Under the pieces are notes generated by a model that worked only from the letters and a program-made list of their open reading frames with translations, had not been told where the DNA came from and made no database searches. Made by a program: the position numbers and the translations under genes. Shown here piece after piece: positions 3,332-39,728 of a stretch of 64,000 nucleotides of DNA. Source of the stretch: Ancylobacter novellus DSM 506 (GTDB lineage Bacteria > Pseudomonadota > Alphaproteobacteria > Rhizobiales > Xanthobacteraceae); the NCBI RefSeq assembly GCF_000092925.1, contig NC_014217.1:1302001-1366000 (forward strand). The letters run 5' to 3'. Within the stretch, counting starts at the first letter, position 1. Each line of letters begins with the position of its first letter.

Positions 3332-4050
3332 CCGGAGCATGGGCCGCGGAGATCAAGGCTACCGCCCTGAGCGTGACGATCGCCATCGTGCCGCTCGTCC
3401 TGCTCTTCTTGCTCGTTCAGGTCTTCCTGCTGAAATTGCCGCAACGGGAGGTCGCCGATATCCTCAAGGGAACAGCGATCGCGGCAGGGGGGCTTTTCCT
3501 GTTTTTGCTTGGCATCGGCATCGGTTTCCTGCCCTTCGGCAGGGCCGTGGGTGCGGCTCTCGGCGCATTGGACCGAACCTGGCTGTTCGTGCTCGGCGGG
3601 CTTCTGCTCGGGCTGTTCACGGCATGGGGAGAGCCCGCGGTGCGCATTCTCGCCGATCAGGTGGAGCAGGCCTCGAGCGGCTCCATTCCCGGATCGCTTG
3701 TACTGTGGGCGATCTGCGTCGGCGTCGCTCTCTGGGTCGGTCTGGGCATGTTCAGAATTGCCTACGGGATTCCGCTATTATACCTGCTCGTGCCGGGCTA
3801 TCTGCTGGCCATCGGCCTGATGTGGCTCAGCGACAGGGATTTCGTCGCGATTGCCGTGGATGCCGGCGGCGTCGCGACCGGGCCGCTGGCCAATAGCTTC
3901 CTCCTGGCTCTGGCACTTGGCGCCTCTGCGTCGATGGGGGATCAGGATCCCATCGTCCACGGCTTCGGCTTCGTCGCGCTGATCGCCCTGGCGCCGATCA
4001 TATCCGTCATGGTGCTCGGGCTCTTCGTCCGGCTGAAGACCCGCACCTAG
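3325..4050 (+). CDS. DUF1538 membrane protein, second of a pair (UmpB-like)
   Basis: A 242-residue polytopic membrane protein homologous to its upstream neighbour. The motif equivalents are TAWGEPAV and VDAGGVATGPL. The frame stays open upstream inside the first gene. ATG 3325 is the chosen start because it overlaps the preceding stop (TGA 3329-3331) and gives an N-terminus matching the family. With the first protein it probably forms a heteromeric cation/proton exchanger. The stop at 4048-4050 is part of the ribosome binding site (TAGGAG) of the next gene, so the three genes are one transcription unit. Confidence 0.8.
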   Translation: MVTGAWAAEIKATALSVTIAIVPLVLLFLLVQVFLLKLPQREVADILKGTAIAAGGLFLFLLGIGIGFLPFGRAVGAALGALDRTWLFVLGGLLLGLFTAWGEPAVRILADQVEQASSGSIPGSLVLWAICVGVALWVGLGMFRIAYGIPLLYLLVPGYLLAIGLMWLSDRDFVAIAVDAGGVATGPLANSFLLALALGASASMGDQDPIVHGFGFVALIALAPIISVMVLGLFVRLKTRT

Positions 4051-4061
4051 GAGTGACTCCA

Positions 4062-4421
4062 ATGCAACCAGCCTCGACGCAACCAGCCCCGATGCAGAGC
4101 CCGTGCCTGATCGTCACCATCGTGCGCAAAGGCTGGGGCGACACCGTCCTGAAGGCCACGATGGACGCGGGCGCCCATGGCGGCACGGTCCTGTTCGGGC
4201 GCGGCGTCGGGCGCAACGAGCAGCAGCACGTCTTCGGTATCCAGATCGAGCCGGAAAAGGAAATCGTCCTGACCGTCGTGCCGGCGGATCTGAAGGAGGT
4301 GATGCTTGAGGAGATCGTGCGTGCCGCGGAACTGACTATGCCCGGTAACGGCCTCGCCTTCGTCGTCCCGGTCGATAAAGTGGCCGGCATCGTGCATCTG
4401 GTCGAGGAACGCCCCTCGTGA
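4062..4421 (+). CDS. P-II family (GlnB-like) signalling protein
   Basis: A ~119-residue protein with the P-II ferredoxin-like fold pattern. It has an N-terminal CLIVTIVRKG strand, a helix with DTVLKATMDAGAHGGTVLFGRG replacing the T-loop entry, and a C-terminal VDKVAGIVHL strand. The N-terminus has a 12-15 residue extension rich in Q, P and M. The canonical T-loop uridylylation tyrosine is not evident, so this is a specialised P-II-like protein rather than GlnB or GlnK. ATG 4062 lies 8 nt after TAGGAG. It directly follows the DUF1538 pair, as GlnK follows AmtB, suggesting it gates that transporter through a nucleotide or other small effector. Confidence 0.8.
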   Translation: MQPASTQPAPMQSPCLIVTIVRKGWGDTVLKATMDAGAHGGTVLFGRGVGRNEQQHVFGIQIEPEKEIVLTVVPADLKEVMLEEIVRAAELTMPGNGLAFVVPVDKVAGIVHLVEERPS

Positions 4422-4474
4422 TCCAAGCCGCGCGGCCGACCGGGAATCGATCGCCGCATCGGTAGAACCCAGCT

Positions 4475-7348
4475 ATGCAATCGGTCGCGGATGGGTATCG
4501 TCGCAGCATGTCCGCGACGTCCCCCGCCCCGCTCGTCGATGAGCCCTACCGGCAGAGCGCCGACGAGATCATCGCCATCCTGGAGACGCGGCGCCAGTCC
4601 GGCCTCAGCCGGACGGAGGCGGCGTGGCGCCTGGCGCATTATGGCCGCAACGAGCTCGATGCGGTGCCGCCGCGTCCGCAATGGCTGAAGTTCCTCGACC
4701 AGTTCACCGACGTGCTGGTGCTCCTGCTGCTCGTCGCGGCGATGGTTTCCGCCGCGATCTGGCTGCAGGAGCGAGACACGGCGCTCCCCTATGAGGCCCT
4801 GGCGATCTTCGCCATCGTGATCCTCAACGCCCTGATGGGCTACATTCAGGAAGCCCGGGCGGAGCAAGCTGCGGCGGCGCTGCGGCAAATGTCGGCCACA
4901 CATTCGACCGTCATCCGCGACGGCGATAGGCGAAGCATCCCGGCGGCCGAGCTCGTGCCCGGCGACATCGTCCTGATTGCGGAGGGCAATACCATCCCCG
5001 CCGATGCGCGGCTGATCGAATCGACCTCCCTGCAGACGGTGGAAGCCGCGCTCACCGGCGAGAGCCTCCCGGTTTCGAAGGACATCGCCGTCCTCTCCGG
5101 CACGCCCGAGCTCGGCGACCAGCACAACATGGTCTTTAGCGGAACCGCGGCGGTTTATGGCCATGGCAGCGCCGTCGTGACCGCGACCGGGATGCGGACC
5201 GCCATGGGGCGCATCGCCGGCATGCTGGAAAAGGCGCCGGACGAGATCACGCCGCTGCAGCGGGAACTCGGTCGGGTCGGGAAGACGCTGGCGGTCACCG
5301 TCGTTCTCATCGCCCTCGCGATGATCGGCACGATCTTCCTCGTCAGCGATATCCACGGCTTCGCCGAGATATTCGACGTGCTGATCCTCGGCGTCGCGCT
5401 GGCCGTCGCCGCGGTGCCGGAGGGACTGCCGGCGGTGGTCACCGCCGTGCTGTCGCTCGGCATGCAACGCATGGCGAAGAACAAGGCCATCATCCGCCGG
5501 CTGGCGGCGGTGGAGACGCTCGGCTCGGCGACGGTCATCGCCTCCGACAAGACCGGCACGCTGACCCGAAACGAGATGACGGTGCGCCGGGTCGTGACGG
5601 CGAGCGGGAGCGCAAATCTGTCGGGGACCGGTTATGCGCCGCATGGCGACATAGAGTTCGTCGGGTCGCCATCGCCCGACGCACCGTTGCAGCTCGAGCT
5701 CATGCGCGCGCTGACCGCCGCCGAACGGGCCAATAATGCGGTGCTGCAGGAGCGCAACGGCAACTGGACCGTCCAGGGGGATCCGACGGAGGGCGCCCTG
5801 CTCGTTGCGGCGCGCAAGGCCGGTCTGTTCCCGGAGGCCCTCGATGCGCGCTTCGCGCGGGTTGGCGAAGTGCCGTTTTCCTCCGAACGCAAGCTGATGA
5901 GCACGGTCCACACGGATGCCGAGCAGTCCGAGCGTCTGATCGCGGTGACCAAGGGGGCGCCTGATATCCTGCTGGCGCGCTGCACCCGTGAGCTTGTCGG
6001 CCGGGACGCCGTCGCGCTCACCGAGGCGCGCAGGGCCGAGATCATGGCGAGCAATGACGCGCTCGCCCATGAGGCGCTGAGGACGCTCGCCGTCGCCTTC
6101 CGCTCGCTGCCGGCCGAGCACGCTGACCATGGCGCCTTCGCGGAGGATGTGGAACACGATCTCGTCTTTCTCGGCCTGATCGGGCTGATCGACCCGCCGC
6201 GCCAGGAAGCGCGGGAAGCCGTCGCGCGGGCGCAGTCGGCGGGCATACGCTGCATCATGATCACTGGCGATCATCCGGTGACCGCGGCGATCATCGCCGC
6301 CGAGCTCGGCATCATCTCTGACGGCCGCGCCGTCACCGGCGCCGAGCTTGCGGCGATGACCGAGGCCGAGCTCGACCGGACCGTCCGGGAGGTCTGCGTC
6401 TATGCCAGGGTCAATCCCGAGCACAAGCTGGGGATCGTCAAGGCGTTGCAGCGCGGGGGAGAGACGGTCGCCATGACCGGCGATGGCGTCAACGACGCTC
6501 CCGCGCTGAAAGCCGCCGACATCGGTGTCGCCATGGGCATCACCGGCACCGACGTCTCCAAGGAGGCGGCCGACTTGGTGCTGGCGGACGACAACTTCGC
6601 CACCATCGTCGCCGCCGTGGAAGAGGGGCGGGCGATCTTCGCCAACATCAGGAAGTTTCTGCGCTACCTCTTGTCGTCAAACATCGGCGAGGTCATGACC
6701 ATGTTCTTCGGCATCCTCCTCGCCGACGTCATCGGATTGGCCAGCACGGCCGCCAGCGGCATCGCGCTGCCGCTTCTCGCCACGCAGATCCTCTGGATCA
6801 ACCTCGTCACCGACGGGGCGCCGGCGCTGGCGCTCGGCATCGATCCCGCCGACGAGGATGGGATGCACCGGCCGCCCCGCCCGCGCGGCGAGGGCGTCAT
6901 CACGGGACAGATGTGGGCCGGCATTTTCCTGGTCGGCGCGATCATGGCGGTCGGCACGCTGTTCGTGCTCGACGCCGCGCTGCCCGGGGGACTGATCGAA
7001 GGCTCGGGCACTCTCGCCTATGGCCGGACCATGGCCTTCACGACGCTCGTGATGTTCCAGCTGTTCAACGTCTTCAACGCGCGCTCCGACGATCGCAGCG
7101 CCTTTCACGGCCTCTTCACCAATCGCTGGCTCTGGAGCGCGGTCGTGCTTTCACTGCTGCTGCACGCTTTCGTGGTTTACACGCCCCTCCTTCAGCAGGC
7201 GTTCTCGACCGTCGGCCTTGGCGCCGGAGACTGGCTGTTTTGTGCGGCGGTCTCAAGTTCGGTCTTGTGGCTCCGCGAATTGAGCAAGATCATGATGGCC
7301 CCCGCCGATGTTCCGAACGGCCAGTATGATCGTTCACCACTCCGATAG
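4475..7348 (+). CDS. P2-type cation-transporting ATPase (Ca2+/Na+-like)
   Basis: A complete 957-residue P-type ATPase. In order: N-terminal cation_ATPase_N domain; actuator domain with TGES at residues 194-197; membrane segment with PEGL at 315-318; phosphorylation motif DKTGTLT with acceptor Asp358; nucleotide domain with KGAP; hinge TGDGVNDAPALKAADIGVAMG; and C-terminal helices containing NLVTDGAPALALG. PEGL and the N..TD pair in M6 resemble SERCA/PMR-type Ca2+ pumps, although some relatives move Na+ or Mn2+. No N-terminal heavy-metal CxxC domain is present. ATG 4508 is an alternative start. It lies 53 bp after the P-II gene and probably belongs to the same ion-homeostasis locus. Confidence 0.88.
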   Translation: MQSVADGYRRSMSATSPAPLVDEPYRQSADEIIAILETRRQSGLSRTEAAWRLAHYGRNELDAVPPRPQWLKFLDQFTDVLVLLLLVAAMVSAAIWLQERDTALPYEALAIFAIVILNALMGYIQEARAEQAAAALRQMSATHSTVIRDGDRRSIPAAELVPGDIVLIAEGNTIPADARLIESTSLQTVEAALTGESLPVSKDIAVLSGTPELGDQHNMVFSGTAAVYGHGSAVVTATGMRTAMGRIAGMLEKAPDEITPLQRELGRVGKTLAVTVVLIALAMIGTIFLVSDIHGFAEIFDVLILGVALAVAAVPEGLPAVVTAVLSLGMQRMAKNKAIIRRLAAVETLGSATVIASDKTGTLTRNEMTVRRVVTASGSANLSGTGYAPHGDIEFVGSPSPDAPLQLELMRALTAAERANNAVLQERNGNWTVQGDPTEGALLVAARKAGLFPEALDARFARVGEVPFSSERKLMSTVHTDAEQSERLIAVTKGAPDILLARCTRELVGRDAVALTEARRAEIMASNDALAHEALRTLAVAFRSLPAEHADHGAFAEDVEHDLVFLGLIGLIDPPRQEAREAVARAQSAGIRCIMITGDHPVTAAIIAAELGIISDGRAVTGAELAAMTEAELDRTVREVCVYARVNPEHKLGIVKALQRGGETVAMTGDGVNDAPALKAADIGVAMGITGTDVSKEAADLVLADDNFATIVAAVEEGRAIFANIRKFLRYLLSSNIGEVMTMFFGILLADVIGLASTAASGIALPLLATQILWINLVTDGAPALALGIDPADEDGMHRPPRPRGEGVITGQMWAGIFLVGAIMAVGTLFVLDAALPGGLIEGSGTLAYGRTMAFTTLVMFQLFNVFNARSDDRSAFHGLFTNRWLWSAVVLSLLLHAFVVYTPLLQQAFSTVGLGAGDWLFCAAVSSSVLWLRELSKIMMAPADVPNGQYDRSPLR

Positions 7349-32798: not shown

Positions 32799-35261
32799 TC
32801 AGGAGGTGTATTCCTGCGACTTGAAGCTCAGATGCTGCACGCCCTTCGGCGCGTCGGCGATCTTCCGGATGCTGCCCCAGGTCTGCTTGTAGTTCGGGAT
32901 GACGAACTCGTTGACCCCCGACGACACCACGTTGCCCTGAACGCCGGTCGGGTAGCCGAACAGCATGAAGGCCTGTTTGGGCTTGGCGCTCGGCGTGGGG
33001 TAGGCCATGGCCTGGGTCGAGCCGTTGTCGTTGTAGACCTCGACGAGATCGCCTTGCTTGAGGCCGAGTTCGGCCATGTCCTGGAGGTTCAGTTCGATAA
33101 ACGGGTAGGGCCACCGATCGGTGACAAACTCGTTCTCGACATCCAGATAGGCGCTTTGCCAGACGAGGTTGGCCCGGCCGTTGTTGATCAGGAAGGGGAA
33201 CTTGTCCTTCTCGGCTTGCTTGCCGGGTGCCTCCAGACCCCGCCACTGAGTTTGCGCGAACACCGCCTTTCCGTCCGGCTTGTTGAACTTGCCGTCGGCA
33301 AAGAGCCGCTTGGTCCCGACGATCTGGCCGTCCTGGACGCCGGTCGCGGGCTCCTGGAAGCCGTTCGTGCCCATGGTCCGCAGCAGGTCGTAGGTGACGA
33401 ACTCGCCGCCCTTTTCATGGCCGTGATAGCCGTCCATGAAGGCGTCCTCCTCGGTCTTCCAGTCGAAGCCCGAGAATTTCGCCGCGACGTCCGCCTTGCC
33501 CATTTCGCCGAGCACGCGCTGCATGTGGTTGGCGATGCGCGCCGCGATGAGACAGTCCGGCATGGCGACACCGGGCGGATCCATGTAGCGCTCGGTGAGC
33601 CGCATGCGCCGTTCGCCGTTCATCGAGGTGAGGTTCATCTCGCCCGAGGTGGCCGCGGGCAGCATGACGTGGGCGGCCTCGCCGACCTTGGTCGGAACGA
33701 TGTCCACGTCGACCGAGAACAGCCCACCCTTGCGGATCGCATCCATGATGGCCGCGACCATGGCAGGCCGATCGCCATAGGGGACGGCGTTCATGGCGTC
33801 TTTCACGAGGTCGGTGCGCTTCTTGTAGACCCGCTTGAACTCCATGGCGTTCAGCGTCGTCTTGTAGTGGTCGCATCCCCAGATGTGGTGGACGCCGCCC
33901 TTGCCCTCGATCAGCAGCTTGTCGACATAGGCCGCGGGCCTACCGACATGGGCATCCGACGGGCGGGAGTAGCCCTCCTGATGACCGCCCATGCGCACGC
34001 AGCCACCGCCGGGACGTCCGATATTGCCCGTCGCCAGCGCCAGGTTCACCAGCGACTGGTTGGTGCGGTAGTTGTCGTTGCCCCAGATCAGGCCCTTCTC
34101 ATAGGCGAACATGGCGCGGCGGCGCGCGCCCCCCGCCTTCGGCTCGGCGATCCAGGTGATCGCCTTGACGATGTCGGCCTCGGACAGGCCGGTGATCTTC
34201 GCCGCCTCGGCGATCGACGTCTTGTTGGCGGCGACCGCCTTGTCGAAATCGTTCGTGGAGGCGCCGATGAAGGCCTTGTCGATCCAACCCTTGTCGACCG
34301 CGTAGGTGAACCAGGCGTTGAACAGCGCCAGGTCGGTGCCCGAGTTAAGCGCGAGATGGAGCACGTTCTCCTTCCCCGCCTCGGCTTCGCAAGCGTTGAC
34401 CGTCACCGTCCGCCGCGGATCGACGATCACGACGCGTCCCCGCTCGACGGGTTCGCTCCCGAACTCCGCCTTCTTCTTGTCGAGCGACGCGCCGCGCAGG
34501 TTCGGCACCCAGTGGTTCAGGAAATAATTGGTCTGGGTCTCGAGCGCGTTGGTGCCGACCGCGACGATGGTGTCGGCGAGCTGCGCGTCCTCGTAGCAGT
34601 TGTTGAGCTCCCCCACGCCCATGTCGCGCGAGCCGTGAACCTCGGAGTTGTAGGCGGGGCGGTTGTGGATGCGGATGTTCTTGACCTTCATGGCCCCGAA
34701 ATAGAGCTTGCCAGTGCCCCAGGTGTTCTCATAGCCGCCGCCGGCGCCGCCATGGTCGAAGGCGGAGACGAACAGGCCGTCCTCGCCCTGCTCGGCGATC
34801 ACCGCGGCCGTCACCCGGGCGACGAGATCGAGCGCGTCCTCCCAGCTTGTCGGCTGCAACTGGCCGTAGCGCCAAACGAGGGGATCGGTGAGCCGCTGGA
34901 GTTGCGTATTGCGCTGGCGCGAATAGCTCATCTCGGCGATGCGCGCGCCGCGCACCGAGCCGAGCCCGGAGTTCACCGAGCATTCACGATCGGGCTTGAT
35001 GACGATGTGAACGTCGCGGCCGTCCTGCCGGACGATGTTGTACATGGACGGCGCGTACCAGGCAGGCGTATCCGCCTCCTGCTGCTGCGAGAGATCCACG
35101 CCGAACGCGTTGTCCGCCGGGGCGGTGCCGCCCTCGTAGCGAGCATCCCAGCTATAGGCCTTGTAGCCGCAGCCGACGATGCAGTAGTGGCAGACGACGT
35201 TGTGAACCTTGGCATTCACCGGCACTATGGGCAGCCGGCCGATCTGGCGCTTGTAGGCCAT
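32799..35261 (-). CDS. aioA: arsenite oxidase large subunit AioA
   Basis: An 820-residue molybdopterin oxidoreductase. The 3Fe-4S motif Cys24-Cys27-Cys31 lies in VCHYCIVGCGYKAYSW, which is diagnostic of AioA; the fourth ligand position is not a cysteine. The bis-MGD-binding core follows (DTIVAVGTNALETQTNYFLNHW, NIGRPGGGCVRMGGHQEGY). It oxidises As(III) to As(V) in the periplasm, exported as a folded complex using the Tat signal of AioB. It starts 11 bp after aioB. No cytochrome c gene follows, although related loci often have one. Confidence 0.96.
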   Translation of the reverse strand: MAYKRQIGRLPIVPVNAKVHNVVCHYCIVGCGYKAYSWDARYEGGTAPADNAFGVDLSQQQEADTPAWYAPSMYNIVRQDGRDVHIVIKPDRECSVNSGLGSVRGARIAEMSYSRQRNTQLQRLTDPLVWRYGQLQPTSWEDALDLVARVTAAVIAEQGEDGLFVSAFDHGGAGGGYENTWGTGKLYFGAMKVKNIRIHNRPAYNSEVHGSRDMGVGELNNCYEDAQLADTIVAVGTNALETQTNYFLNHWVPNLRGASLDKKKAEFGSEPVERGRVVIVDPRRTVTVNACEAEAGKENVLHLALNSGTDLALFNAWFTYAVDKGWIDKAFIGASTNDFDKAVAANKTSIAEAAKITGLSEADIVKAITWIAEPKAGGARRRAMFAYEKGLIWGNDNYRTNQSLVNLALATGNIGRPGGGCVRMGGHQEGYSRPSDAHVGRPAAYVDKLLIEGKGGVHHIWGCDHYKTTLNAMEFKRVYKKRTDLVKDAMNAVPYGDRPAMVAAIMDAIRKGGLFSVDVDIVPTKVGEAAHVMLPAATSGEMNLTSMNGERRMRLTERYMDPPGVAMPDCLIAARIANHMQRVLGEMGKADVAAKFSGFDWKTEEDAFMDGYHGHEKGGEFVTYDLLRTMGTNGFQEPATGVQDGQIVGTKRLFADGKFNKPDGKAVFAQTQWRGLEAPGKQAEKDKFPFLINNGRANLVWQSAYLDVENEFVTDRWPYPFIELNLQDMAELGLKQGDLVEVYNDNGSTQAMAYPTPSAKPKQAFMLFGYPTGVQGNVVSSGVNEFVIPNYKQTWGSIRKIADAPKGVQHLSFKSQEYTS

Positions 35262-35272
35262 CTTTCCCTCCC

Positions 35273-35800
35273 TCAGAGCACGTTCGACAGGCGGCCATAG
35301 AGGAGCTCGTCTACGCCCTCGGCGTAGATGTCGCCCTTGTCATCGATGCGCAGAGCGTATTGGGGGAGGTTCTGCGTCGCCTGGCCCCAGATCTGCTGCC
35401 CGCCCTTCTCGCAGTCGAAGCGGGAATAGTGCCCGGGGCAATTCAGCGTGCGGTCTCCCGCCGAATAGGACAGCGGAAAGCCCTTGTGGGGGCACGCGGT
35501 CGAGAACCCGACGATGTCGCCGTCCGGGCCCGCGCCGCCGGGCACGCGCGTGCCGAGCTTGAGCAGGACGCCCGGCGCATCCTCGTCCGGATAAGTGACG
35601 TCGAATGCCTCGTCGACCTTCAGGTCCTTTACGTTGCCGAGGCGGTTGACCGGATATTTGACCAATGCCGCCGCCGCGGGCTGGGCCGCTTGGGCCTCCG
35701 CGGGCAGCACGCTCGTCACCGCCGCGCCCGCCGTCATGACCCCGGCTCCCGTCAGGAACTTCCGGCGCCCGGCATCCACGAGGTTGTTGCACCTCTTCAT
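35273..35800 (-). CDS. aioB: arsenite oxidase Rieske subunit AioB
   Basis: A 175-residue protein with a twin-arginine signal (GRRKFLTGAG, residues 11-20). The Rieske 2Fe-2S ligands are Cys103, His105, Cys121 and His124 (CPHKG...CPGH). At the positions where many Rieske proteins have a disulfide, this one has Phe108 and Gly123, as in the Rhizobium NT-26 enzyme to my recollection. AioB passes electrons from AioA to a c-type cytochrome or azurin. GGAGGGAG sits just before ATG 35800. Transcription is predicted from the sigma-54 promoter at 35844-35857. Confidence 0.95.
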   Translation of the reverse strand: MKRCNNLVDAGRRKFLTGAGVMTAGAAVTSVLPAEAQAAQPAAAALVKYPVNRLGNVKDLKVDEAFDVTYPDEDAPGVLLKLGTRVPGGAGPDGDIVGFSTACPHKGFPLSYSAGDRTLNCPGHYSRFDCEKGGQQIWGQATQNLPQYALRIDDKGDIYAEGVDELLYGRLSNVL

Positions 35801-35843
35801 CTTGGCTCCCTCCCATAGTGTCCGATCGGACGGGAGCGGCATT

Positions 35844-35857
35844 GCAGCCATTGGGCC
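35844..35857 (-). promoter_or_regulatory. sigma-54 (-24/-12) promoter of aioBA
   Basis: The minus strand reads TTGGCCCAATGGCTGCA, with the -24 GG at 35857-35856 and the -12 GC at 35845-35844, exactly 12 bp apart as required. The predicted start is near 35832, leaving a 32-nt leader with a strong ribosome site for aioB. The adjacent gene encodes an NtrC-type activator (AioR), in line with sigma-54 control of arsenite oxidase in Agrobacterium. Confidence 0.75.
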
Positions 35858-35922
35858 AAGAACGAATCTTGTTGTTTGTCAGATGGTTGGCTGATCCGGG
35901 ACGTCTAATGGCCTGCTTCGAC

Positions 35923-35938
35923 GTTCGGGAACCCGAAC
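35923..35938. promoter_or_regulatory. AioR enhancer-site candidate, proximal
   Basis: GTTCGGGAACCCGAAC is a 16-bp dyad with perfect 7-bp arms, centred about 98 bp upstream of the predicted aioB transcription start. It is one of a pair whose centres lie 33 bp apart, about three helical turns. Confidence 0.6.
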
Positions 35939-35955
35939 ATGCTGCAACGCCGTGG

Positions 35956-35971
35956 GTTCGGGTTTCCGGAC
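35956..35971. promoter_or_regulatory. AioR enhancer-site candidate, distal
   Basis: GTTCGGGTTTCCGGAC repeats the proximal dyad with two arm mismatches, centred about 131 bp upstream of the predicted start and only 4 bp after the aioR stop. Paired dyads on the same helix face are typical of sites for NtrC-type activators. Confidence 0.55.
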
Positions 35972-35975
35972 AAGC

Positions 35976-37301
35976 CTACGCATCGAGGCCGAGGCGGCGC
36001 ATCTTCTCCCACAGGGTTGTACGCCCGATGCCGAGCAGCCGCGCCGCTCCGCTGATCTCGCCATTCGTCGCGGCCAGCGCCCGTACGATGTGTCGACGTT
36101 CCGCCTCGAGCCGAGCGGTCTCAAGGGATTCGAAGGTGGCCGAAGACACAGGCCTGCCGGCGGATTCAGGGAAGAGGTCGCCGGGCATCAGCCACGGCCC
36201 CATCGCCAAGGCGACCGCACGTTCCATGCGGTTGCGCAGCTCGCGGACGTTGCCGGGCCATGCATGCGCGAGGGCTGCCTCCTGGGCGAGGCCGCTAATG
36301 CCGCGAGCCTGCGTCGGTAATTGTTCCGAGAGTTCCGCGAAGAAGCGGTCCATCAGCCACGGGATGTCCTCGAGTCGCTCGCGCAGCGCCGGAAGGCGGA
36401 TGGTGACGACGTTGACTCGGTAGAACAGGTCCTCGCGGAAGCTTCCTTCCCGGACGCGTGACGGGAGGTCGGCGTTGGTCGCCGTGACCAGGCGGCCGCG
36501 GAAGGGGACCGGCCGCTCGCCACCCACACGGTGAAGGGTCCGCTCCTCGATGAGCCGTAGCAGCTTGGCCTGGAGATCCGGACGGAGCTCGGCAATCTCG
36601 TCGAGGAAGAGGATTCCGTTGGCCGCCCGCTCGGCGTAACCGGCATGGCGCTGTACGGCCCCGGTGAAGGCTCCCTTTTCGTGACCGAACAGTTCGCTTT
36701 CCATCAAATGGGTGGGAATGGCGGCGCAGTTGACCGCAACGAAGGGAGTGGACGGATCGGCGGAGGCGGCATGAAGGAGGCGTGCCGCGACATCCTTGCC
36801 CGTTCCGGTCTCGCCGGTGATCAGGACGTTCGAATTGATGCGCGCGACCCGCCGCAGCAGGTGCTCCACATCCAGCATGGCGGGTGACATGCCGAGCGTC
36901 TGTGTCGCCGGATCGTGTCCCCTGACGAGGTCACCGAGCCGAGCCAGGAAATCATCCATCTCGAATGGCTTGGTGACGTAATCGACCGCCCCGGCCCGCA
37001 TCAGCCGGACCGCCTGATCGATGTCGCCATGGCCAGTGATGAACAGAAACGGAGGAGCGTTGGGAACGCGCACGACCTCTCGGAATAATGCCTCGCCGCT
37101 GAGGTCGGGAAGCCTGATGTCGCAGACCACGGCTTGCAACGGGTGGCGCCCCATCTCGCCAAGCGCCTGCGTTCCTGCCAGCCACCATTTGACGGTCACT
37201 CCTTCCAGCGCGAGCCGCTGGACGAGGCTCTCGCCCATGATGGAATCATCCTCGACGAGGCCGATGAGCGGCGCGTCAGGCGACATCGGCGAGAACCTCA
37301 T
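35976..37301 (-). CDS. aioR: AioR, NtrC-family sigma-54-dependent response regulator
   Basis: A 441-residue three-domain activator. The receiver domain has phosphoacceptor Asp61 (VVCDIRLPD) and Lys111. The AAA+ domain has Walker A GETGTGKD (163-170) and GAFTGA (210-215), the sigma-54 contact loop. A Fis-type HTH ends the protein (ISGAARLLGIGRTTLWEKMRRLG). It overlaps the aioS stop, showing coupled expression; ATG 37286 is an alternative start. It is predicted to activate the aioBA promoter from the two dyads in the aioR-aioB gap. Confidence 0.93.
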   Translation of the reverse strand: MRFSPMSPDAPLIGLVEDDSIMGESLVQRLALEGVTVKWWLAGTQALGEMGRHPLQAVVCDIRLPDLSGEALFREVVRVPNAPPFLFITGHGDIDQAVRLMRAGAVDYVTKPFEMDDFLARLGDLVRGHDPATQTLGMSPAMLDVEHLLRRVARINSNVLITGETGTGKDVAARLLHAASADPSTPFVAVNCAAIPTHLMESELFGHEKGAFTGAVQRHAGYAERAANGILFLDEIAELRPDLQAKLLRLIEERTLHRVGGERPVPFRGRLVTATNADLPSRVREGSFREDLFYRVNVVTIRLPALRERLEDIPWLMDRFFAELSEQLPTQARGISGLAQEAALAHAWPGNVRELRNRMERAVALAMGPWLMPGDLFPESAGRPVSSATFESLETARLEAERRHIVRALAATNGEISGAARLLGIGRTTLWEKMRRLGLDA

Positions 37302-38729: not shown

Positions 38730-39614
38730 CTAGCCTGCCGATGCAACGAGTGCCGCCTTCGCGGCGATTGGGCCGAACAGCTCCGGTCCCCGGCTCACGA
38801 AACCATCAAGGCGCAACATGGCGAGCACGGCACGTCCGTCCTCGTCTTCCATCATGTGCAGCAGCGCCTTCGACAACAGGGCGAGACGTGCCGGGTCGAC
38901 CGGATTGCGAGGCGCGGCGATTGGGGGGAAGCCGAGCCATTCCGAGCGCCACATCACGCGCGTGCGCGCCGCCAGCGCGGGTTCCATCGCGGCCACGACC
39001 TCGTAGACATAGCCATCGACGGAACCGGACGCGGCCAGCCCGGAGGCCACGGCCCGGATAACGTTCCGGTGCCCGTAGGTGAAGAACGTCCGGGCAAAAA
39101 ACCTTTCCGGAGTTTCTCGCATCTCGGCCAAGGCGGCGCGGGTAACGAGGAAGCCGGAGTTGGAGTCCGGGTCGGAAAAGGCGTGGGTGTCGCCCCGCAA
39201 GTCTCCGAGATCGTCGCCGTCACGATCTGCGTCGACGATCAAATAGGACTGATAGAGCGGCCGACCCCGCCATTCCGGAATGGCAACGAGCTGGAGCTCG
39301 CTCTCATGCATGACGTATGGATAGCCACAGATCCACGCCGCGTCGATCTGTCTCGAAATAAGGAGAGCTACTATTTCCTGATAAGTGCGTCGCGTGAGCA
39401 GCGTCACCGGGAAGCCAGTCGCGCGAGATAAATAAAGTTGAAGTCGGCCGAGCAGTTCTAAGTCGGATGTCAGGAAAACAGGCGTCAGCCCGAAGCGAAG
39501 TTCTTCGACGTTCGCAGACGAATAGCTTTCAGGAGCCATGAAGCAAGCGGTCGTGGCCGCGATCTGTTTCAGAAACAGGCGGCGGCTCACCGTCGTATCG
39601 GCGCTCCCCAACAT
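38730..39614 (-). CDS. aioX: AioX, periplasmic As(III)-binding protein
   Basis: A 294-residue PhnD/TRAP-like periplasmic binding protein with an N-terminal signal ([17 protein letters not shown], Tat-like RR). Cys96 in [12 protein letters not shown] matches the single conserved cysteine known to be needed for As(III) sensing in Agrobacterium AioX. ATG 39614 is chosen because it puts the signal at the N-terminus; the frame is open for another 37 codons upstream. It is first in aioX-aioS-aioR and divergent from the GAPDH gene, with a ~200-bp shared control region. Confidence 0.9.
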
Positions 39615-39728
39615 GGCGTTTCCCGTTTTTAGTTCTTCTTTTTCCAGAGACGTTACCCTGTTTCCTTTGGGACGGAAATGCGGACCATCATCACGATGGC
39701 GACCACCCAGGAGCCGGGCCCGCAAAAG

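What the first reader, a model, noticed from the sequence alone, without database searches (positions are those of the whole stretch)
35844..35971. Complete sigma-54 promoter architecture with paired AioR dyads
A -24/-12 element with exact spacing lies 44 bp before aioB. Two dyads, GTTCGGGAACCCGAAC and GTTCGGGTTTCCGGAC, are centred at about -98 and -131, 33 bp (three turns) apart. AioR carries GAFTGA. This offers a concrete binding motif for AioR.
Basis: partly seen in the sequence, partly recalled or inferred. Interest (0 to 1): 0.7.

Follow-up and report, generated by a model that had tools for sequence, protein, structure and literature searches.

The report
Known AioR switch, rewired in relatives
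The control region in front of the arsenite-oxidase genes is a textbook and already published switch driven by the regulator AioR, but comparing it with relatives suggests that some bacteria have rewired the same switch to the ordinary transcription machinery while keeping the regulator's docking site.

Summary
A -24/-12 element (35844-35858, minus strand) and two dyads (35923-35938, 35956-35971), 33 bp apart, fill the aioR-aioB gap. Genome length equals that of Starkeya novella DSM 506, whose arsenic island Li et al. 2013 list; they report two palindromes plus -24/-12 before aioB in all 12 aioXSR-linked operons. An AioR motif and footprint followed in 2017. So the feature itself is already known.

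New here, from 127 aioB loci: (1) dyad pairs stand 33 bp apart in 52 of 71, and proximal dyad to -24 is 58-62, 70-74 or 81-82 bp in 70 of 71, as if kept in helical phase. (2) AioR recognition helix and dyad base 3 covary. (3) AioRs keeping a GAFTGA-type loop have -24/-12 in 77 of 79 promoters; AioRs that lost it (mostly Rhodobacteraceae) in 0 of 26, yet keep a dyad in 26 of 26. Instead 26 of 26 Rhodobacteraceae-type promoters have TANNNT 89-92 bp from the dyad (controls 2 of 65; new loci 9 of 10). Seven such genomes show no rpoN over the cut-off. AioR has probably switched from sigma54 to sigma70 there.

The parts
35844..35858 (-). -24/-12 (sigma54) promoter element TGGCCCAATGGCTGC
   Evidence: same position relative to the dyads in relatives
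35923..35938 (-). proximal AioR dyad, 12 of 12 motif positions, centre 72 bp from the T of the -24 TGG
   Evidence: read by eye it fits the published AioR expression
35956..35971 (-). distal AioR dyad, 11 of 12 motif positions, 33 bp from the proximal one
   Evidence: read by eye it fits the published AioR expression on the minus strand
35939..35955 (-). 17-bp linker between the dyads; its CGGCGTTGCAGCAT fits the linker consensus CGGcg..GCAgCAT of relatives
   Evidence: consensus of the gap-72 group (29 loci); the gap-71 group (15 loci) is similar
35976..37301 (-). aioR: receiver, AAA+ and Fis-type HTH; GAFTGA at 36657-36674, Walker A at 36795-36815, Walker B at 36594-36611, recognition helix at 36000-36029
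35273..35800 (-). aioB, small (Rieske) subunit of arsenite oxidase
   Evidence: TIGR02694, 199.9 bits, cut-off 95.65 (read from 35803, one codon early); start set by the conserved Tat signal MKRC
32799..35261 (-). aioA, large (molybdopterin) subunit of arsenite oxidase
   Evidence: TIGR02693, 1303 bits
37276..38727 (-). aioS, sensor histidine kinase
   Evidence: kinase family hits below their cut-offs, and position
38730..39680 (-). aioX-like periplasmic binding protein
   Evidence: PhnD-type family hits below cut-off; position next to aioS

Best explanation
In the window: the aioB operon has one main inducible promoter, of the -24/-12 type read by sigma54-RNA polymerase. AioX and AioS sense arsenite and phosphorylate AioR (inferred from published work on relatives). 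AioR binds as dimers to two dyads about three helical turns apart, on roughly one face of the DNA and in phase with the promoter, forms its AAA+ ring, and uses the GAFTGA loop and ATP hydrolysis to open the sigma54 polymerase. Shown here: the elements, their spacing, their conservation, and their dependence on the state of AioR across relatives. Inferred: binding, phosphorylation and sigma54 dependence in this strain.
For: Exact elements and low chance. Among non-redundant loci whose AioR keeps GAFTGA or a close variant, -24/-12 of 8 of 10 or better is found in 77 of 79 and a dyad of 10 of 12 or better in 73 of 79; shuffled promoters give 3.5% and 1.6%. With the first, stricter rule that also demands the -12 GC, 70 of 79. 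A dyad pair, sought at 28-36 bp, is found in 71 of the 77 (shuffled promoters of the 79 loci: 10 of 3,160); spacing 33 in 52, 29-32 in 19. Proximal-dyad-to-TGG distances are 58-62 (12), 70-74 (56), 81-82 (2) and 174 (1), none at 63-69 or 75-80. Where AioR lost the sigma54-contact loop, -24/-12 is found in 0 of 26 but the dyad stays in 26 of 26. Recognition-helix residue and dyad base 3 covary. The published NT-26 RpoN promoter TGGCACAACGATTGCA is recovered by the same procedure. rpoN is present in this genome.
Against: No experiment in this strain. The -24 half reads TGGCCC, not TGGCAC, and the -12 half CTGC, not TTGC (8 of 10); similar deviations occur in its nearest relatives. Two GAFTGA-type loci failed the -24/-12 threshold (L072, 7 of 10; L195, 6 of 10), four passed only without the -12 GC (L075, L078, L151, L167), and six had no dyad of 10 or better (L124, L159, L165, L194, L195, L196). 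L159's best site, a weak one, would stand at 68 bp, out of phase. The IHF-like sites seen in 20 of 71 loci are not above chance in the window (7 of 9).
Confidence: 0.93

Rival explanations
1. The dyads are operators of another regulator (an ArsR/AioF-type repressor or PhoB), and AioR acts elsewhere.
For: AioF sites and PhoB effects on aio genes are reported in other bacteria (PMC7533571, passages; PMC4563254, listing only).
Against: 15 of 19 loci without a detected AioR lack a dyad of 10 or better. The dyad base changes with the AioR recognition helix. The dyad arms equal those of a DNase I footprint of AioR.
Confidence: 0.03
2. The promoter is real but minor: aioBA is mostly transcribed by read-through from aioXSR, which lies upstream on the same strand.
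For: All six genes lie on one strand and aioX-aioS-aioR overlap or nearly abut; PMC3834237 describes aioX-S-R-B-A as one operon in A. tumefaciens 5A.
Against: Conservation and apparent phase-keeping of the promoter; a separate aioB promoter is reported in NT-26. In some relatives aioXSR lies on the opposite strand (L087, L093, L094, L107, L115, L120, L141) and the architecture persists.
Confidence: 0.06
3. About the relatives: AioR without the GAFTGA loop is a decayed regulator or a repressor, and the TANNNT element is an unrelated constitutive promoter.
For: The Walker B acidic pair is missing in 23 of 23 Rhodobacteraceae-type proteins. Two such aioR frames are broken in the fetched DNA (L181, L188). 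No -35 above chance.
Against: The other reading frames read are intact, with receiver and HTH conserved. The dyad is kept in 26 of 26. TANNNT stands at a fixed 89-92 bp from it in 26 of 26, and in 9 of 10 new loci. Rhodobacter capsulatus NtrC, also without the loop, is reported to activate through sigma70 (PMC10274813, passages).
Confidence: 0.17

Closest known systems
aioXSR-controlled aioBA sigma54 promoters (Li et al. 2013, PMC3834237)
   Same: Two tandem palindromes 100-200 nt upstream of aioB plus -24/-12; Starkeya novella DSM 506 is among the 21 islands.
   Different: Nothing in kind. The spacing classes, the helix-operator covariation and the GAFTGA-less group are not in the passages and sections I read. 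That paper says all 12 aioXSR operons have -24/-12; Rhodobacter sp. SW2 is listed among the islands, but I could not tell whether it is one of the 12, and I did not examine it.
AioR site upstream of mcp in Agrobacterium GW4 (Shi et al. 2017, PMC5335332)
   Same: Footprinted GTTCGGATTTCCGAAC; its six-base arms are identical to those of the proximal dyad here.
   Different: There the 170-bp aioBA probe is described as holding one putative site; here there are two.
NtrC of Rhodobacter capsulatus and Caulobacter without GAFTGA (PMC10274813)
   Same: Loss of the L1 loop, use of sigma70 promoters; in R. capsulatus ATP binding rather than hydrolysis is needed, which parallels the kept Walker A and lost Walker B of Rhodobacteraceae-type AioR.
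   Different: A different regulator: AioRs form a clade apart from the 11 NtrC-like rows included. The swap of the core promoter under a fixed operator can be followed here across relatives.

Membership tests
AioR-controlled sigma54 promoter of aioBA | -24/-12 element with exact GG/GC spacing | tested here: met
[quoted passage not shown]
   centres at -130 and -163 from ATG
AioR-controlled sigma54 promoter of aioBA | aioXSR adjacent | tested here: met
   AioS and AioX by kinase and PhnD-type hits plus position
AioR-controlled sigma54 promoter of aioBA | activator with receiver, AAA+ with GAFTGA, Walker A and B, HTH | tested here: met
AioR-controlled sigma54 promoter of aioBA | rpoN in the genome | tested here: met
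   (437.6 bits)
AioR-controlled sigma54 promoter of aioBA | arsenite-induced, RpoN- and AioR-dependent transcription | not testable with these tools
   no expression data
GAFTGA-less, sigma70-type activators (R. capsulatus NtrC type), for the relatives only | L1/GAFTGA absent | tested here: met
   26 of 105 classifiable AioRs lost or corrupted, 23 of them by deletion; the window's AioR does not meet it
GAFTGA-less, sigma70-type activators (R. capsulatus NtrC type), for the relatives only | target promoter has a sigma70 -10 and no -24/-12 | tested here: met
   exceptions among new loci: L258 also has a 9 of 10 -24/-12 match, L224 has neither dyad nor TANNNT found before aioB
GAFTGA-less, sigma70-type activators (R. 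capsulatus NtrC type), for the relatives only | recognisable -35 | tested here: not met
   mean best match 2.23 against 2.12 shuffled
GAFTGA-less, sigma70-type activators (R. capsulatus NtrC type), for the relatives only | activates sigma70 polymerase | not testable with these tools
   needs in vitro transcription

The most novel reading that the evidence does not exclude
AioR has been converted from a sigma54 enhancer-binding ATPase into a sigma70-type activator in Rhodobacteraceae, and probably also in two other lineages. The operator stayed in place at about -100 while the core promoter was exchanged from -24/-12 to a -10 element. This let arsenite oxidation keep its own regulator in genomes in which no rpoN over the cut-off was found.
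Probability: 0.8. Interest if true: 0.6.

Novelty: already known. Interest (0 to 1): 0.45.

Why it matters
For the window: it fixes the arsenite-oxidase promoter of Starkeya novella (now Ancylobacter novellus, name recalled) in base detail and suggests a spacing rule (about three turns between sites, whole turns to the promoter) that can be tested by inserting 5 against 10 bp. For the field: how an activator can leave sigma54 is known from a few NtrC-type proteins. Here one regulator-promoter pair can be followed before and after the change, with the operator as a fixed reference and with apparently rpoN-less genomes as end points. It also warns that calling aio regulation RpoN-dependent from the presence of aioXSR fails in Rhodobacteraceae, where some records name the loop-less protein a sigma54-interacting or sigma54-dependent regulator.

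Tried and rejected
A genome-wide AioR regulon in this genome: with up to 2 mismatches the dyad pattern is no commoner than its reversed control (266+274 against 343+374); the third exact hit lies in a reading frame; the composite pattern has one place in this genome, the aioB promoter. Rejected at this stringency.

IHF site in the window: 7 of 9, as expected by chance. Rejected for the window; enriched in the sigma54 group (20 of 71 at 8 or 9 of 9, about 2.7% of shuffles) and not clearly so in the Rhodobacteraceae group (3 of 26, 3.8% of shuffles).

A -35 element in the Rhodobacteraceae promoters: not above shuffles.

Rhodobacteraceae AioR as a recruited loop-less NtrC: the tree puts every AioR apart from the 11 NtrC-like rows (99% SH-aLRT, quick tree). 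Not all of those rows are certain to be NtrC: five of six from Rhodobacteraceae carry GSFTGA or GSFNGA and may be other activators.

Three independent losses: parsimony gives 3 changes, but the AU test does not reject one clade of all loop-less AioRs (p 0.08), and the independent-pairs test has only 2-3 pairs and cannot reach significance. So 'at least two or three' is likely, not shown.

-24/-12 rule: the first rule (GG and GC fixed) gave 70 of 79 against 0 of 24; after looking at the misses I dropped the GC demand, widened the stretch searched, re-set two mis-called aioB starts (L099, L116) and added L139 and L153 to the loop-less group, which gave 77 of 79 against 0 of 26.

5'-UTR hairpins: only mononucleotide shuffles were used, so left as an observation.

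Papers: Andres 2013 is not held; Kang 2012 and Sardiwal 2010 were not opened. Searches on loop-less AioR: searches found 0 papers each; of the 15 of 43 papers listed and the 8 of 8, no title or abstract start dealt with it, and of them only PMC10274813, PMC2848651, PMC3834237 and PMC6011840 were opened. Only this library was searched. (helical phasing) was seen as a listing only.

Full report
CHECK OF THE OBSERVATION. The window is C1:1302001-1366000 of a 4,765,023-bp genome, the length published for the Starkeya novella type strain (PMC3570799, passages). On the minus strand the order is aioX, aioS, aioR, aioB, aioA, moaA. The aioR-aioB gap is 175 bp (35801-35975). It holds TGGCCCAATGGCTGC (35858-35844), GTTCGGGAACCCGAAC (35923-35938) and GTTCGGGTTTCCGGAC (35956-35971), 33 bp apart. 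An equally good pair to the motif arises in 0 of 20,000 dinucleotide shuffles of the gap, though a pair by dyad symmetry alone arises in 25 of 5,000. The mechanical ORF starting at 35851 would begin upstream of the predicted transcript start; the conserved Tat start MKRC at 35800 is used instead.

ALREADY IN PRINT. Li et al. 2013 (PMC3834237; passages, and sections 8 and 11 read whole) report two tandem palindromes 100-200 nt upstream of aioB and -24/-12 in all 12 aioBA operons with aioXSR, and name Starkeya novella DSM 506 among their 21 islands. That it is one of the 12 is my inference from its adjacent aioXSR. Shi et al. 2017 (PMC5335332, passages) give a motif from 12 aioBA regions and a footprint of GTTCGGATTTCCGAAC. 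Read by eye, each dyad here fits that published expression on one strand. Koechler et al. 2010 (PMC2848651, passages) show RpoN dependence, the mapped start and the GAFTGA of AoxR in Herminiimonas. The window's feature is therefore known in kind, and probably in this very locus.

SAMPLE. By AioR: 79 with GAFTGA (71) or a close variant (8), 26 with the loop lost or corrupted, 19 with no AioR found in the stretch held, 3 not classifiable (L181, L188 broken frames, L182 cut by the contig end). The sample is mostly alphaproteobacterial and many rows are related, so counts are not independent trials. Four of the 19 loci without a detected AioR do have dyads (L092, L096, L128, L130) and 5 of 19 a -24/-12 match; L130 has aioX and aioS, but its stretch ends before any aioR was seen.

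ARCHITECTURE. In the GAFTGA group 77 of 79 have a -24/-12 of 8 of 10 or better and 73 of 79 a dyad of 10 of 12 or better; shuffled promoters 3.5% and 1.6%. The rule was loosened after a first pass that gave 70 of 79 (see Tried and rejected). Of the 77, 71 have a pair when pairs are sought at 28-36 bp (shuffled 10 of 3,160); spacing 29 (2), 30 (3), 31 (6), 32 (8), 33 (52). Without that limit, taking the two sites nearest the promoter, 67 of 70 spacings are 29-33 and three are 19-21. Distance from proximal dyad centre to TGG: 58-62 in 12, 70-74 in 56, 81-82 in 2, 174 in 1 (L117); none at 63-69 or 75-80. Without the pair rule a few further values appear (51, 54, 83, 91, 95, 102), in part from extra weak sites. 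Of the six loci without a qualifying pair, L159's weak best site would stand at 68 bp, out of phase. The short class appears in several genera (Methylobrevis, Xanthobacter, Hyphomicrobium, Devosia). I read this as whole-turn changes. A periodicity measure on the 13 distinct values does not single out 10.5 bp (0.64 there, 0.72 at 11.5), so the phase claim rests on the gaps in the distribution and remains to be tested. In plasmid records 7 of 7 GAFTGA-type loci with an AioB have -24/-12 of 8 or better, including the published NT-26 promoter. That call examined 12 records: 7 GAFTGA-type, 4 loop-less and one in which no AioB was found (L228); 14 of the 46 records matched were fetched, two of them without aio genes in the stretch (L232, L233).

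READING OF THE DYAD. Among 294 half-sites under the recognition helix RTTLW (87 loci), base 3 is T in 238. Under RSTLW (7 loci, much alike) it is C in 28 of 28, and under RSTLF (3 loci) C in 12 of 12. Two single loci with RTTMW and RTTFW are mixed. Under RKNLW or RKSLW (3 loci of another class) and RTTLF (1 locus) no such dyad is found. The clades involved are few. Still, this is what direct binding by AioR predicts.

THE SWITCH IN RELATIVES. In Rhodobacteraceae-type AioR the block that holds the L1/GAFTGA loop is deleted, and the Walker B D-E pair is absent in 23 of 23, while Walker A GxxGxGK is kept in 23 of 23. Three further AioRs have corrupted loops: L129 (GAYMGS, Walker A K to R), L145 (GIASGS), L164 (SSVDGD). 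None of these 26 has -24/-12 at 8 of 10 or better; all 26 keep a dyad. In the 26 Rhodobacteraceae-type promoters (the 23 plus L181, L182, L188) TANNNT stands 89-92 bp from the dyad centre in 26 of 26, against 2 of 65 in the sigma54 group; 500 shuffles of the same 26 gave a mean of 1.9 and a maximum of 6. L129 and L145 have it at 83 bp; L164 has one at 76 bp. The rule was seen on these data and then tested on 11 further loop-less loci. One (L244) is identical to a training promoter. One of the nine, L258, also has a 9 of 10 match to -24/-12 at -38, 98 bp from the dyad, which speaks against a clean rule. The tenth (Pseudosulfitobacter, L224) has an IS3 transposase gene between aioR and aioB and neither dyad nor TANNNT was found in the 400 bp before aioB.

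TWO SWAPS. L170 lies in a genome of the Rhodobacteraceae group, yet has a GAFTGA AioR, two dyads and -24/-12. L153 lies in a genome of the window's own order, yet has the deleted AioR, one dyad and TANNNT at 90. In these two the promoter type follows the regulator, not the host.

RPON. Of 27 genomes searched, 20 have an rpoN match at E 0.001 or better, 18 over the cut-off, the window's included. The 7 without any (G899, G877, G939, G1101, G960, G867, G1027) all belong to the Rhodobacteraceae group. A second search with Sigma54_DBD found nothing in 6 of those 7, and in G939 one 40-residue match below the cut-off; both positive controls were found. G899 is only 76% complete, the others 97% or more. 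Their loci (L172, L178, L181, L183, L184, L185, L188) carry the dyad and TANNNT. The AioR frame is intact in 5 of these 7; in L181 and L188 it is broken as fetched. If rpoN is truly missing there, these promoters cannot be sigma54-driven.

PHYLOGENY. On a quick tree of 82 proteins with the loop columns removed, AioRs are separate from the NtrC-like rows (99), and loop loss needs 3 changes; one clade of all losses is not rejected (AU p 0.08).

MECHANISM AND COMPARISON. Estimated operator position is about -98 for the proximal dyad in the window and about -103 in the sigma70 group (computed from the TANNNT position, assuming a start 6-7 bases after it). Loss of the loop and of Walker B with Walker A kept parallels R. 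capsulatus NtrC, reported to act on sigma70 and to need ATP binding rather than hydrolysis (PMC10274813, passages). I did not find a report of this for AioR in the library searched.

VERDICT. The finding is right and its interpretation sound, but it is known. The novelty label refers to the window's own feature. The part worth following is the rewired variant in relatives.

Noticed in passing
window 35820-35831: A perfect 12-bp palindrome, GTCCGATCGGAC, lies at about +2 to +13 of the predicted transcript; some relatives have inverted repeats with other loops at the same place (L069-L071 GTCCGCACGCGGAC, L079 GTCCGAAAGGAC).
   Followed up: partly
window 35801-35843 and 75 other sigma54-type loci: The aioB 5' leader tends to fold, often pairing the Shine-Dalgarno region with an upstream CTCC run: mean z -1.74, z below -2 in 29 of 76, window -2.29 (mononucleotide shuffles only).
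   Followed up: partly
window 35939-35955 and relatives: The 17-bp linker between the dyads is itself conserved (CGGcg..GCAgCAT in the gap-72 group, 29 loci; similar in the gap-71 group, 15 loci); I have no explanation for it.
   Followed up: no
sigma54-type loci, mostly 30-52 bp from the proximal dyad: IHF-like sites of 8 or 9 of 9 in 20 of 71 loci, about 2.7% in shuffles.
   Followed up: partly
L222 (Cereibacter azotoformans pORIO3): A loop-less AioR-like regulator stands before a 4Fe-4S/molybdopterin oxidoreductase operon that is not annotated as aio; two perfect dyads 33 bp apart and TACCAT at 90 bp, no -24/-12.
   Followed up: partly
L224 (Pseudosulfitobacter pseudonitzschiae plasmid) 3969-5056: An IS3 transposase gene lies between aioR and aioB.
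   Followed up: no
L117: The dyad pair stands 174 bp from the -24 instead of about 72, about 102 bp further upstream; origin of the extra DNA not examined.
   Followed up: no
L194-L196 (aioXSR on the opposite strand, genomes of another class): AioR recognition helix RKNLW or RKSLW and no GTTCGG dyad within 400 bp of aioB, so these AioRs may read another sequence.
   Followed up: no
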